A stretch of 64,000 bases of DNA from Halomicrobium urmianum (lineage in GTDB: Archaea > Halobacteriota > Halobacteria > Halobacteriales > Haloarculaceae). The notes beneath the pieces are model-generated. The model had not been told where the DNA came from. It did no database searches and worked only from the letters and a program-made list of their open reading frames with translations. Below, piece by piece: positions 11,133 to 63,668 of this stretch; the stretch's first letter is position 1; every line of letters starts with the position of its first letter. The translations under genes were made by a program, and so were the position numbers. Location of the stretch: assembly GCF_020217425.1 (NCBI RefSeq), contig NZ_CP084090.1:1984001-2048000 (forward strand), read 5' to 3'.

Positions 11133-11294
11133 GGACGTGGATTCGAGCGACCCCACTAAACAGTTTGCAAGGATGGGGTGACACTCGGCCGCGGGTCACG
11201 CTTTCGGGGATTAGATCCCGGAGGCCGCACACCGATTTCGGGACTGTTCGCGACACGCCGACGGCGGTCGCTCACGGTGTTGAAATCGGAGAAG

Positions 11295-11367
11295 CGCCCG
11301 AGGCGGGATTTGAACCCGCGTCACGACCGTGACAGGGTCGTATGATGGGCCACTACACCACCCGGGC
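11295..11367 (-). tRNA. tRNA-Asp (GTC), copy 2
   Basis: The 73-nt gene on the minus strand folds into a standard cloverleaf. The 7-bp acceptor stem pairs GCCCGGG with CTCGGGC (one G-U), the anticodon loop CTGTCAC carries GTC, and the T arm is CGCGGGTTCAAATCCCGC. Discriminator base is G; CCA is not encoded. It is identical to the copy at 11409-11481 and lies 41 bp after it in the direction of transcription, so both are probably processed from one precursor. Confidence 0.96.
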
Positions 11368-11408
11368 ATTCGGGTGCGTCGCAGCGTTCGTCACAGCGTT
11401 AGTAGAAG

Positions 11409-11481
11409 CGCCCGAGGCGGGATTTGAACCCGCGTCACGACCGTGACAGGGTCGTATGATGGGCCACTACACCACCCGGGC
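11409..11481 (-). tRNA. tRNA-Asp (GTC), copy 1
   Basis: This copy is identical in all 73 nt to the gene at 11295-11367, with the GTC anticodon and the same arms. It is the first of the pair to be transcribed. A likely promoter is the AT-rich CTTAATAAG at about 11521-11530 on the minus strand, some 40 nt upstream, leaving a short 5' leader for RNase P. No intron is present. Confidence 0.96.
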
Positions 11482-11735
11482 ACGCTGGCACTTCGCTGCA
11501 CTTCTTCGTATCCGGGTATTCTTATTAAGGCTTTCCAAACGGACCGCCATTGTGTGGCGGTGTCGTGCCTCTCTCCGGGCAGACGGCGGTCCCGTCTGGT
11601 CGACGCGGAGTGAGAAAGAGAGTCCGTCGGCGTGGGGCCGACTGATCACCTACGAACGGCAACCGGAAGCTCTGGGTCGGTTGTCGCCGCTGTTCAGCCC
11701 TCGTACTGCAGGTCGCCCTCGTGGACCCACCAGAA
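11482..11735. other. intergenic region with tRNA-Asp promoter and the lost 3' codons of the peptide-binding gene
   Basis: The right end (11694-11735) reads in frame with the substrate-binding protein gene after its TAG and would encode FWWVHEGDLQYEG before a TGA, so it is probably former coding sequence. The left end holds the tRNA promoter. I see no other gene in the middle. Confidence 0.6.
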
Positions 11736-32013: not shown

Positions 32014-32147
32014 ACGTTACACAGGAAGGGATTCCGCCGTATTACTCTTGCGGGGGCGTGACACGGGCCGCACGACGGCGGCGGTATCGGCGTCGTTCCC
32101 GTGGGTCCTCGGGAATCGTTCTCCGCTGCGACCGTCCGCCCCTCCAA

Positions 32148-32306
32148 CGAGCGTTCATTTGCGTGCTTCCAGTTGTCGCACGCACGCGGAAACACCGATA
32201 GACGGCTCCCTGCCGGTCGCCGTCTATCGAGCGTCCATTTGCGTGCTTCCAGTTGTCGCACGCAAATGGAAACGCCGGGAGACTCGTCGCTGCCCTCCTC
32301 GTCTCC
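32148..32306 (+). repeat. tandem two-hairpin repeat array, units 1 and 2
   Basis: Two adjacent units (32148-32227, 80 bp; 32228-32306, 79 bp) both begin CGAGCGT and share CATTTGCGTGCTTCCAGTTG and TCGCACGCA. Each unit holds two stem-loops. Hairpin one in unit 2 is a perfect CATTTGCGTGC/GCACGCAAATG stem with an 11-nt loop. Hairpin two is GATAGACGGC/GCCGTCTATC in unit 1 and GGGAGAC/GTCTCCC in unit 2, so the stem is kept while its sequence changes. A third, IS-split unit continues at 32307-32314 and 33328-33366. Confidence 0.85.
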
Positions 32307-39980: not shown

Positions 39981-40289
39981 ATGCAGCAGGCACGCGTCCG
40001 GTTGGCGGGCACCAGCCCCGAGGACCTCGACGACATCACCGAGGACGTCCGGGACATCGCCAACAAGACCGGGGTCGAACTCTCCGGTCCGGTCCCGCTC
40101 CCGACGAAGACGCTGGAAGTTCCCACTCGCAAGTCCCCCGACGGTGAAGGGACTGCGACGTGGGAGCACTGGGAGATGCGCGTCCACAAGCGCCTCATCG
40201 ACATCGACGCCGACGAACGGGCGCTGCGCCAGCTGATGCGCATTCAGGTCCCGAACGACGTCTCGATCGAGATCGTCCTCGAGGACTGA
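39981..40289 (+). CDS. rps10: 30S ribosomal protein S10 (uS10)
   Basis: The 102-aa protein has motifs [40 protein letters not shown] and [20 protein letters not shown], standard for archaeal S10, part of the head of the small subunit near the A site. It is cotranscribed with aEF-1alpha. The stop region (GACTGAG) contains the ACTGAG motif that recurs between the hairpins downstream. Confidence 0.97.
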
Positions 40290-40290
40290 G

Positions 40291-40480
40291 CAAACCCGAA
40301 CAGGTTTGCGAAGGTCGGAAGACGGCGGAGCCGTCTTCCGGTACTGAGTGGAATCCCTGATTCCATGAGGGTCGAAAGACGCCTTCGGCGTCTTTCGGGA
40401 CTGAGCTGAACTGACCGCGGTTTGCGGTACCCGAGGTGCGCGACGCGCCTCGGTCTGAGCCCGCGCGGTGCGGGTTCGAC
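40291..40480. repeat. hairpin cluster B with recurring ACTGAG spacer (after rps10)
   Basis: Consecutive perfect stems are CAAACC/GGTTTG (40291-40308), GGAAGACGGC/GCCGTCTTCC loop GGA (40317-40339), GGAATC/GATTCC (40350-40364), CGAAAGACGCC/GGCGTCTTTCG loop TTC (40373-40397), ACCGC/GCGGT (40414-40428) and CCGAGG...CCTCGG (40431-40453), plus an imperfect CCCGC/GCGGG pair (40460-40475). ACTGAG or CTGAG occurs at 40285, 40343, 40400 and about 40455, punctuating the series. The rest of 40480-40725 holds only the tRNA-Ala upstream region; I see no gene. Confidence 0.8.
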
Positions 40481-40725
40481 CTCCGCTGTATGCTCGCTCG
40501 CAGAGGTGTTCGACCTTCGATCGCCTCTCTTTGCCTCTCCGAGCGGCGACACGACGACGTACTATTTGCGAGGCTCCAGTCGCCCAGTGGCGTCTCCGAC
40601 GCTTTCTGACGACCACTCGAACGGTTGCGGCGGCTGCAGCGGCGCGGGTCATTGTCCGACACGGTGGCTCAAACCCGCGACAGAACGGAAGCCTCAAGTA
40701 CGACTCGCCCGGTACGATTGGATGC

Positions 40726-61684: not shown

Positions 61685-62665
61685 ATGTACGCAATCGAGA
61701 TCACCCCCGAGCATCCGATCGAGGAACTGACCGAGCTGGCCGTCGCGGCGGAGGAGGCCGACTTCGACGCCGTCGTGGCCAGCCACCACTACAACAACCG
61801 CGACCAGTTCATGGCATTGACTGCCATGGCCCGCGCCACGGAGGAGATCCGGGTAGGCACGGGCGTCGCCAACCCCTACGAGACCCACCCCGTGACGCTG
61901 GCCTCGCGGACGGCGACGCTGTCCGAGGTCAGCGACGGGCGCGCCCTCTTCGGGATCGGTCCCGGCGACGGCTCGACGCTCTCGAACCTCGGCGTCGACC
62001 GGGACCGTCCGCTCCGGCGCGTCCTGGAGACGTTCAAAGTGGCCCAGCGGCTCTGGGACGGCGAGCGCGTCGACCACGACGGCACCTTCACCGCCCGCGG
62101 CGCCGGCCTCAACTACGACGTCGGCGACGTCCCGGTCTACGTCGGCGCGCAGGGCCCGCACATGACGCGGATGGCCGCCAAGCACGCCGACGGCGCCATG
62201 TACAACGGCGCCCACCCGCGGGACCTCGCGTGGGCCGCCGAGCGCGCGGCGGAGGGAGCGGAAGACCGGCCCGACGAGCGCGGCGAGTTCGACCTGGCCG
62301 CCTACGCCAGCGTCTCGGTCGCCGAGGACGAGGAGCGCGCCCGCGAGGCGGCACGCCGCCCCGTCGCCTTCATCGCCGCCGGCGCTCCGGAGCCGGTCCT
62401 GCAGCGCCACGACCTCGATCCCGAACGGGCGGAGAACGTGGGCGAGGCCATCGCTGCCGGCGACTTCCGGGCGGCCGACGAGCGCGTCTCAGAGGCGATG
62501 ATCGACGCCTTCTGCGCCGCCGGCACGCCGGAGACCGTCGCCGAGCGGACCGACGAACTGCTCGAACACGCCGACAGCGTCGTCTACGCCTCGCCGCTCG
62601 GCCCCGACCCGGAGCGGGCTATCGATCTGCTCGCGGCTGCCCGCGACTCCCGACGTCGGGCGTGA
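61685..62665 (+). CDS. mer: F420-dependent methylenetetrahydro(metano)pterin/folate reductase-like, Mer
   Basis: The 326-aa LLM-class (luciferase-like) F420 enzyme starts at ATG 61685. Motifs: AIEITPEHPIEELTELAVAA, DAVVASHHYNNRDQFMALTA, IRVGTGVANPYETHPVTLAS, GRALFGIGPGDGSTLSNLG and PVYVGAQGPHMTRMAAKHAD. Methanogen Mer uses methanopterin; haloarchaea use folates, so here the likely step is methylene- to methyl-tetrahydrofolate. Its 3' end overlaps a convergent small gene. Confidence 0.92.
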   Translation: MYAIEITPEHPIEELTELAVAAEEADFDAVVASHHYNNRDQFMALTAMARATEEIRVGTGVANPYETHPVTLASRTATLSEVSDGRALFGIGPGDGSTLSNLGVDRDRPLRRVLETFKVAQRLWDGERVDHDGTFTARGAGLNYDVGDVPVYVGAQGPHMTRMAAKHADGAMYNGAHPRDLAWAAERAAEGAEDRPDERGEFDLAAYASVSVAEDEERAREAARRPVAFIAAGAPEPVLQRHDLDPERAENVGEAIAAGDFRAADERVSEAMIDAFCAAGTPETVAERTDELLEHADSVVYASPLGPDPERAIDLLAAARDSRRRA

Positions 62666-62840
62666 TCAGGTCGACGGCCGCGCCCAGCGTCAGATAGCCC
62701 ATCACCGCGATCGAGGCGCCGATCAGCAGTCCACCCATTACGACCAGAAGTGCCGAGAGGGGGTCGACCGTCATGACCTCCAGGAACTCGCCCGGCATAC
62801 TGACGATGCTGTCGATCAGCTCACTCAGCAGCGATTGCAT
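62619..62840 (-). CDS. 73-aa one-to-two-helix membrane protein, convergent with mer
   Basis: Starts at ATG 62840 (MQSLLSELIDSIVSMPGEFL). Central hydrophobic segment SALLVVMGGLLIGASIAVMG followed by YLTLGAAVDLI, ending with a basic/polar tail GSRGQPRADR. The last 47 bp lie within the 3' end of mer on the other strand. No family recognised. Composition before the hydrophobic segment looks coding, so it is likely real. Confidence 0.55.
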   Translation of the reverse strand: MQSLLSELIDSIVSMPGEFLEVMTVDPLSALLVVMGGLLIGASIAVMGYLTLGAAVDLITPDVGSRGQPRADR

Positions 62841-62931
62841 GGGGGACCGTTGGCACACCCGCCACTTGGCTCTCCCGGTCCGCTTCTAGGAACGGTGTGT
62901 ACCTTCTGTGGGGACAGGTCCGTTATGATTG

Positions 62932-63320
62932 GGAACAACCAGAAAGCCCCGGCCTGTTCGACTCGGGGGTGGTTCGAGAGACGGCTCTCCCGTCTCTCGT
63001 CATCACGAAAGATGCCTCTGGCATCTTTCGAACGACCTCGCTGTGCGCTTCGCTCACTCCGTTCGCTGCAGTGCTTGCGTCGGCCGCCGTCGTCGAACAG
63101 GCCGCCCCTTTCAGTCCCACCCGTGTCGGCTGGTCAATCAGCCGAAAGGTGGGACTGAAAGGGGCCGACCCGCTCCGGGAACCCCGGCGAAGCAAGCACC
63201 GTCGTTCGAGAGAGTCTCGTGATCACGAAAGACGCCGGAGGCGTCTTTCGAACGACAACACAGTGAGGACCGCAGCGAGCCGCGGGACCGGAGCAGGTCG
63301 GGGGCTTTCTGGTTCTCGTC
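62932..63320. repeat. hairpin-cluster element D with terminal inverted repeats
   Basis: The 62841-63389 gap holds this structured element. Ends: GAACAACCAGAAAGCCCCGG (62933-62952) is largely the reverse complement of CGGGGGCTTTCTGGTTCTC near 63299-63317. Stems inside: GAGAGACGG/CCGTCTCTC (62976-62998), CGAAAGATGCC/GGCATCTTTCG (63006-63030), a perfect 18-bp GCCCCTTTCAGTCCCACC pair (63104-63121 with 63148-63165) enclosing CGGCTG/CAGCCG, and CGAAAGACGCC/GGCGTCTTTCG (63226-63250). The 40-nt core at 63040-63079 differs from element C at three positions. No gene seen. Confidence 0.85.
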
Positions 63321-63389
63321 CTATCCAGTTGCTAGGCTACACGCGACGGTGGCGGGGAACCTAAGGCCCGCGAGCGCACAGCGAGAGGT

Positions 63390-63668
63390 ATGTCGGAGGA
63401 CGCATCGCTGACCGACTTCGCGGCGGGCGACGACGGCGAGAGCGGCGACGAGCCGGTGAGCGACGGCGAGGCGGCCGACGAGAGCGACGGCGCCACGGAC
63501 GGCGACGGGACGGGGACCGACGAGACGACCGCGACGGACGACGTCGAGCCGGCGGAGACGACCTTCGCGTGGTCGCCGGACGGCGTCTGCGAGGCCTGCG
63601 GGGTGGGCGCCGAGCGGCGGTGGCGCGGCGAGGCGGGGCTGGTCTGCGGCGAGTGCAAGGAGTGGTGA
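63390..63668 (+). CDS. 92-aa acidic protein with C-terminal CxxC zinc ribbon
   Basis: Starts at ATG 63390. Residues 1-60 are Asp/Glu/Gly/Thr low complexity; the C-terminal 30 residues are TFAWSPDGVCEACGVGAERR and LVCGECKEW, two CxxC pairs forming a likely single zinc site. The arrangement matches a haloarchaeal family of disordered-tail zinc-ribbon proteins (possibly DUF7573; the number is from memory). Function unknown. Confidence 0.75.
   Translation: MSEDASLTDFAAGDDGESGDEPVSDGEAADESDGATDGDGTGTDETTATDDVEPAETTFAWSPDGVCEACGVGAERRWRGEAGLVCGECKEW

What the first reader, a model, noticed from the sequence alone, without database searches (positions are those of the whole stretch)
62932..63320. 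Second copy of the element (D) with an 18-bp perfect stem and shared core
Element D repeats the terminal motif of C, carries the same 40-nt core (63040-63079), and adds a striking 18-bp perfect stem (63104-63121 with 63148-63165) enclosing a smaller stem. The stem CGAAAGACGCC/GGCGTCTTTCG occurs here (loop GGA) and in cluster B (loop TTC), 23 kb apart. Such modular reuse of stems in different contexts suggests an active generative process, not isolated terminators.
Basis: partly seen in the sequence, partly recalled or inferred. Interest (0 to 1): 0.75.

Follow-up and report, generated by a model that had tools for sequence, protein, structure and literature searches.

The report
Nested palindrome mobile element in haloarchaea
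The stretch is one copy of a scattered, gene-free DNA element of salt-loving archaea that is built of hairpins inside hairpins; related copies carry the ends of a known jumping gene, and copies in sister species differ by small double hairpins and by being flipped in place.

Summary
Element D (window 62933-63319) has inverted ends, an 18-bp perfect central stem and two double hairpins. It belongs to a dispersed family: 74 matches in its own 4.25-Mb genome, centre hairpin in 33 of 146 genomes and 16 of 56 genera of the order. It folds as a nested palindrome. Arms have copy-private sequence yet stay self-complementary: 93% paired within copies, 51% when partners are shuffled (43 copies). In 9 of 72 copies, from Haloarcula and one other genus of the same family, both outer ends match the ends of an IS6-family insertion sequence that is also present in the window's genome; 5 of 10 such copies have perfect 8-bp target duplications, and one copy's site is empty in two sister species. 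The family is therefore best read as MITEs of an IS6-type transposase. None of five complete copies in the window's genome, D included, shows these outer ends, so for D this is inference. The unusual part is the interior: orthologous copies differ by 48-60-nt double hairpins and by in-place inversions. "Active generative process" is largely supported; terminators are not.

The parts
62933..62950 (+). left inner terminal repeat GAACAACCAGAAAGCCCC
   Evidence: shared by copies across the genome
62951..62962 (.). arm 1 basal stem, left strand (pairs with 63092-63103)
   Evidence: sequence; fold; copy-private pairing in the family
62971..63037 (.). double-hairpin module in arm 1 (hairpins 62975-62999 and 63006-63030)
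   Evidence: similar modules are 48-60-nt gaps between orthologues elsewhere
63040..63079 (+). 40-nt core at the tip of arm 1; a diverged, interrupted reverse complement lies in arm 2
   Evidence: one genomic stretch (C1:566013-566076) matches arm 2 directly and arm 1 in reverse
63092..63103 (.). arm 1 basal stem, right strand
63104..63165 (.). central hairpin, 18-bp perfect stem, hallmark of the family
63166..63179 (.). arm 2 basal stem, left strand (pairs with about 63288-63300)
   Evidence: fold
63201..63256 (.). double-hairpin module in arm 2 (hairpins 63207-63219 and 63226-63250), next to AAGCACC, where modules sit in relatives
   Evidence: relatives
63288..63300 (.). arm 2 basal stem, right strand
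63301..63319 (-). right inner terminal repeat (GGGGCTTTCTGGTTCTCGT)
62903..62932 (.). expected place of the left outer shell, by analogy only; no IS6-type end recognisable
   Evidence: distance taken from L376/L378; D's end scores are 5 and 7, not above shuffle
63320..63348 (.). expected place of the right outer shell, by analogy only
   Evidence: as for the left
47870..48000 (+). start of related subtype C (same inner end and core)
40310..40400 (.). cluster B: separate perfect 11-bp hairpins, one with the stem found in D

Best explanation
D is an old copy of a haloarchaeal family of non-autonomous mobile elements (MITE type; 210-503 bp between the inner motifs in the copies held). SHOWN in relatives: outer inverted repeats like those of an IS6-family insertion sequence, 8-bp target duplications, an empty site in sister species, and a near-identical second copy in the same genome. 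INFERRED: the IS6-type transposase copies the elements in trans, and D descends from such an insertion although its outer ends are no longer recognisable. Inside lies a nested palindrome: inner ends, arm 1, a conserved central hairpin (18-19 bp), arm 2. SHOWN: arms have copy-specific sequence but stay self-complementary; orthologous copies differ by 48-60-nt double hairpins, by a whole arm, and by inversion in place at more than one nested level. INFERRED mechanism: when the DNA is single-stranded or extruded as a cruciform, template switching within a strand, or recombination between the two strands of each stem, flips the enclosed loop, rewrites one stem strand from the other (so stems stay perfect) and brings in hairpins from elsewhere. 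A role in gene regulation is not needed to explain it.
For: Dispersed family. Outer ends: of 144 ends, 24 score >=9 (3.2 expected from shuffles), 21 >=10 (1.0 expected), 14 >=12 (0.06 expected); nine of 72 copies have both ends >=9 and a tenth (L390) has 15 and 8. 8-bp duplications: perfect in 5 of these 10 (L376, L378, L377, L334, L385), 7 of 8 in L375; 0 of 90 mismatched flank pairs reach 7. IS6 partner: six copies with both ends in the window's genome, transposase NF033587 E 6.1e-53, same ends; 8-bp duplications at four of the six (L410; L443, L444, L445, read from the flanks printed). Site of L378 empty in G080 and G123; L376 and L378 97.4% identical over 416 bp. Copy-private complementary arms. 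Double hairpins: seven gaps of 48-60 nt, six of them two perfect hairpins; L376/L384 are otherwise almost identical. Inversions: L109 whole element with collinear flanks (222 of 261 nt reverse-only, best paralogue 105), L111 (196 of 283, best paralogue 86), L382/L394 in a second genus (126 of 305, best paralogue 114).
Against: None of the five complete copies from the window's genome in the set of 72, D included, has outer ends above background (no end scores over 7); copies with such ends come from only two genera of the same family. The element-free sites opposite D in G003, G005 and G006 are too diverged (about 75% in the flanks) to place its boundaries. Two of the six IS6 copies in the window's genome (L424, L435) lack matching duplications. 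Arms are shared nearly unchanged between loci, so part of the apparent inversion could be replacement by a paralogue: of 7 reverse-dominated G005/G006 pairs only 4 exceed the best paralogue. Most other pairs keep orientation (9 of 14; six Haloarcula pairs by inspection apart from short stretches). G005 and G006 are drafts (20 and 6 contigs). The six pairs were chosen because an insertion had been seen, so they give no rate. No transposition or inversion was observed in an experiment.
Confidence: 0.66

Rival explanations
1. The elements encode a structured RNA or regulatory hairpins kept by selection (terminators, processing sites or an RNA with a three-armed fold).
For: Strong predicted folds; arm stems keep pairing while their sequence changes; the central stem is nearly invariant (in copies picked by that motif).
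Against: No Rfam match in the window other than three tRNAs; copies lie in all gene orientations; sites are empty, inverted or rearranged in sister species. Both DNA strands fold alike, so pairing does not single out RNA.
Confidence: 0.1
2. D belongs with elements like the small mobile repeats (SMR) of Haloquadratum: inverted ends unrelated to a transposon, no target duplication, unknown mobiliser. The IS6 ends of copies in other genera are then a secondary capture.
For: No IS6-type ends in five complete copies of the window's genome; PMC3119063 describes SMRs with inverted ends, no duplication and insertion into palindromes (passages).
Against: Copies with the same inner ends, arms and centre in Haloarcula and genus g5 have IS6-type ends at a fixed distance and 8-bp duplications; SMR-A are about 110 bp.
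Confidence: 0.16
3. The palindromes are binding sites for a nucleoid or junction-binding protein and spread or are kept for that reason.
For: Conserved central stem; a paper on the archaeal nucleoid protein MC1 surfaced for the word cruciform (search listing only).
Against: Patchy presence (33 of 146 genomes) and turnover between sister species.
Confidence: 0.05
4. The hairpins are chance products of a G+C-rich genome, or assembly artefacts.
For: Draft assemblies of repeats can be wrong; G+C-rich DNA folds strongly.
Against: Shuffle and reversed-pattern controls; recurrence in many assemblies, some in one contig.
Confidence: 0.03

Closest known systems
MITEs of Halobacterium (ISH2, MITEHsal1, MITEHsal2)
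   Same: ISH2: no transposase, termini related to ISH8, mobilised in trans, 10-bp duplication; MITEHsal2: 411-413 bp with 6- and 8-bp duplications (PMC10264941, passages)
   Different: nothing on a nested palindromic interior in the passages seen; whether MITEHsal2 is of this family was not tested
IS6 family insertion sequence (NF033587), about 700 bp
   Same: outer ends GG-NN-GTGTTTAGTT and 8-bp duplication
   Different: the elements carry no transposase; by eye the likeness ends after about 20 nt
SMR-A of Haloquadratum walsbyi
   Same: short, no transposase, inverted ends, association with palindromes (PMC3119063, passages)
   Different: SMRs lack target duplications and IS-like ends and are about 110 bp
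Palindromic repeats of green algal plastids (Chlorosarcinopsis)
   Same: hairpins with 8-13-bp stems and 3-nt loops, loop inversion, palindromes moving into palindromes (PMC7043297, passages)
   Different: plastid, A+T-rich, not inside a MITE; loop inversion on its own was not supported here
GC clusters of yeast mitochondria, RHE of sponge mitochondria, double-hairpin elements of Allomyces
   Same: mobile hairpins without genes; merger and shuffling of GC clusters (PMC4478555 and PMC2800124, abstracts; the Allomyces work is recalled, not read)
   Different: organelles; here the double hairpins sit inside a larger nested element

Membership tests
MITE of an IS6-family transposon (the family as a whole) | terminal inverted repeats related to a resident transposon | tested here: met
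   both ends in 9 of 72 copies, one end and a weak second in a tenth; IS6 with these ends in G000
MITE of an IS6-family transposon (D itself) | terminal inverted repeats related to a resident transposon | tested here: not met
   end scores 5 and 7, within shuffles; decay or a different origin cannot be told apart
MITE of an IS6-family transposon (the family as a whole) | target duplication of the partner's length (8 bp) | tested here: met
   5 of 10 perfect, 0 of 90 null pairs reach 7 of 8
MITE of an IS6-family transposon (D itself) | 8-bp target duplication | tested here: inconclusive
   outer ends not placeable; empty sites in relatives too diverged
MITE of an IS6-family transposon (the family as a whole) | no transposase gene inside | tested here: met
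   210-503 bp between inner motifs; two frames over D have no Pfam match; inner frames of other copies not profile-searched
MITE of an IS6-family transposon (the family as a whole) | mobilised in trans by that transposase | not testable with these tools
   needs an experiment
SMR (Haloquadratum) | inverted ends unrelated to any transposon and no target duplication | tested here: inconclusive
   not met for copies with intact ends; undecided for D and its genome
PATE / IS605-type | no terminal inverted repeats and no duplication | tested here: not met
transcription terminators | position downstream of genes | tested here: not met
   34 copies in all orientations, 11 divergent
double-hairpin element (small modules only) | short indels made of two adjacent hairpins | tested here: met
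   seven gaps of 48-60 nt, six with two perfect hairpins, one with one perfect and one imperfect
double-hairpin element (small modules only) | independent mobility | tested here: inconclusive
   same entry point within a base in L109, L111 and L376; gain and loss not separated
known RNA family | Rfam match | tested here: not met

The most novel reading that the evidence does not exclude
The small double hairpins are themselves mobile units, a prokaryotic counterpart of the double-hairpin elements of mitochondria, that enter palindromes without any gene of their own, while the nested inverted repeats act as spontaneous flip switches between genes, so that these MITEs are self-rewriting palindromes maintained by copying one stem strand from the other.
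Probability: 0.3. Interest if true: 0.85.

Novelty: new variant of a known kind. Interest (0 to 1): 0.6.

Why it matters
Palindrome dynamics of this kind (hairpins entering hairpins, loop inversion, shuffling) are described from organelles of algae, yeasts and sponges. A free-living, genetically workable group of archaea in which sister species differ by single steps would make the mechanism testable. The result also links a widespread class of haloarchaeal intergenic palindromes to an IS6-type transposon, with insertion, inversion and hairpin gain that can be measured.

Tried and rejected
Rfam scan: three tRNAs only. The end motif as a word in papers gave 50 papers, 20 listed, all unrelated by title (probably primers), none opened. 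Searches for a published description of this family gave papers on Haloquadratum SMR/PATE/MITE and on Halobacterium MITEs but none that I could match by sequence; supplements could not be read. The Haloferax and Haloarcula genome papers hold nothing on it in the passages found. No match in 50,697 phage records; 14 plasmid records with partial matches, 11 of them without an annotated feature under the match, 2 without annotation, 1 under a hypothetical protein. A supposed empty site at L212/L167 was wrong: G006 keeps a short form there. At L125 G006 lacks the element, but no duplication could be read. My first view that these elements make no target duplication was wrong: the true ends lie about 36 nt outside the inner repeat. 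L112, L126, L196 and L364/L374 are reverse-dominated but do not exceed the best paralogue, and L386/L394 only equals it, so they are not counted as clean inversions. L118 is nearly even (18 against 16 nt). L114, L122 and L355/L369 share no 16-mers with their orthologues. Inversion of the loop of small hairpins alone: 1 of 9 matched hairpins, inside a larger inverted stretch, so not supported. Model R1 had its structure shifted by two columns through my error and was not used; R2 replaced it. One search dropped 7 of 50 copies as duplicates (same first 60 nt); one search took only copies with 120 nt on both sides.

Full report
WHAT IS THERE. The window is part of a 3.36-Mb contig of a 4.25-Mb haloarchaeal genome. 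D lies between two divergent scored reading frames, 62619-62858 (-) and 63390-63668 (+); in G003, G005 and G006 the corresponding genes are separated by a short spacer without the element.

A GENOME-WIDE FAMILY. D has 74 matches in its own genome (palindromes count on both strands). Its end motif CCAGAAAGCC occurs 52 times against 5 for the reversed control. A covariance model of the centre finds 33 of 146 genomes and 16 of 56 genera at E <= 0.001.

ANATOMY. Copies fold as inner ends enclosing three stems: arm 1, centre, arm 2. In 43 complete copies (some are orthologues of each other) the basal 12 nt of arm 1 has 38 different left sequences but pairs 93.4% within a copy, against 50.7% (maximum 58.5%) in 2000 reshufflings; arm 2 85.3% against 47.9% (maximum 56.0%); the 12 nt outside the inner repeat 65.5% against 49.8% (maximum 58.5%). 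The centre is conserved in sequence rather than covarying (these copies were chosen by that motif). Arm 2 resembles a reverse complement of arm 1 (one stretch matches both, in opposite directions), so the whole is a palindrome of palindromes. Short forms lack arm 2, with the junction GGGACTTTCTGG; G005 L212 is long where G006 L167 is short.

MOBILITY. In genus g5 (G147, G080, G123) two copies in G147 are 97.4% identical over 416 bp. The site of one of them (L378) has no element in G080 or G123 (53 and 18 bp between the matching flanks). Both copies are bounded by 8-bp direct repeats outside GG-NN-GTGTTTAGTT. Over 72 copies, 24 of 144 outer ends score at least 9 (3.2 expected from shuffles) and 14 at least 12 (0.06 expected); nine copies have both ends at 9 or more and a tenth (L390) 15 and 8. 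These ten come from Haloarcula (L139, L218, L334) and genus g5. Five of the ten have a perfect 8-bp duplication and one 7 of 8; the other four reach 4-6 of 8; none of 90 mismatched flank pairs reaches 7. The same ends flank an insertion sequence of about 700 bp, present six times with both ends in the window's genome, whose protein matches the NCBIfam IS6 transposase at E 6.1e-53 (Pfam DDE_Tnp_IS240 at 26.9 bits, just under its cut-off of 27). Four of the six have 8-bp duplications (L410; L443-L445, read); L424 and L435 do not. D and the four other complete copies of the window's genome in this set have no end above score 7, so D is placed here by its shared interior. Three further G000 stretches with a single GTGTTTAGTT hold no inner motif of the family.

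CHANGE BETWEEN SISTER SPECIES. Double hairpins: in six orthologous pairs, chosen because an insertion had been seen, nine gaps of 30 nt or more were found. Seven measure 48-60 nt; six of these consist of two perfect hairpins (stems 7-10 bp, loops 3-5 nt) and the seventh of one perfect and one imperfect. The other two are a split insertion at L109 (32 nt) and the whole arm 2 of L212 (151 nt). L376/L384 are otherwise almost identical, so their two differences look like single events. In L109, L111 and L376 the modules sit at the same point within a base, AAGC-ACCGC.

Inversion: in 13 G005/G006 pairs, reverse-only matches exceed forward-only in 7 (L109, L111, L112, L116, L126, L196, L211), the opposite holds in 4 and 2 share nothing; 4 of the 7 (L109, L111, L116, L211) exceed the best paralogue. 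At L109 the whole element with about 50 bp of shell on each side is inverted while the flanks stay collinear. In 14 pairs from two other genera, 4 are reverse-dominated (two of them one locus), 9 forward, and 1 shares nothing; 2 (L382/L394, L356/L361) exceed the best paralogue and L386/L394 equals it. Six Haloarcula pairs keep orientation by inspection, apart from short stretches in L341/L354. Flanks matched in reverse in 1 of these 27 pairs (19 nt, L195). Arms are also nearly identical at other loci (for example L109 arm 1, 92 of 94, in L124), so exchange between loci is a second source of change.

HOW IT MOST LIKELY WORKS. Spread: an IS6-type transposase acting on the outer ends (inferred from ends, duplications and the presence of the transposon). 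Interior: hairpin-driven template switching or recombination would explain with one process the perfect stems, the flipped segments, the lost arms and the entering hairpins; it is not demonstrated. Terminators and a conserved RNA are disfavoured by position in all gene orientations (34 copies: 11 divergent, 8 convergent, 11 tandem, 4 undetermined; 7 overlap a scored frame) and by turnover.

KNOWN AND NEW. As a transposable element the family is of a known kind, the MITE. The nested palindromic interior with double hairpins and in-place inversion resembles what is described for algal plastids (PMC7043297, passages) and yeast mitochondrial GC clusters (PMC4478555, abstract). I found no description for archaea in the searches listed under Tried and rejected. 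Hence: new variant of a known kind.

Noticed in passing
L424 and L435 (G000:C1 about 1377546 and 1424396): These two IS6 copies lack duplications, but their left flanks are exact 8-bp reverse complements of each other and their right flanks agree in 7 of 8: fits an inversion of the DNA between two copies by recombination.
   Followed up: no
L127 497-890; L128 755-932: Tandem arrays of a 54-bp unit containing GAACAGCCAGAAAGCCCC (seven and three copies) in two genomes of one genus, one of them Halorussus amylolyticus.
   Followed up: no
L144 193-612: A member in G267 carries inside its centre and arm 2 the two strands of another long near-perfect inverted repeat (AGTGTTTGTTGC...GCAACAAACA).
   Followed up: no
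L119 from 1331 and L212 from 1391: The right flanks of two G005 elements on different contigs are identical over the 170 nt printed: duplicated segment or assembly duplicate.
   Followed up: no
G000:C1 1829640-1830480, 2766360-2767040, 1729010-1729550: C-type elements up to about 800 bp with the same architecture, centre CGCCCTTTCATCC, and a further inner stem CACCACTCCTCCCC.
   Followed up: partly
window 11290-11499: Two adjacent tRNA genes in a tandem duplication (96 nt, 93% identical).
   Followed up: no
window 32140-32294: 75-nt direct repeat, 81% identical, 80 nt apart.
   Followed up: no
window 40310-40500: Cluster of perfect hairpins just after a short reading frame ending at 40289; one stem is shared with D.
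   Followed up: partly
MITEHsal2 of Halobacterium salinarum 91-R6 (PMC10264941): 411-413 bp with 6- and 8-bp duplications, close in length to the 416-bp elements here; possible member, sequence not compared.
   Followed up: no
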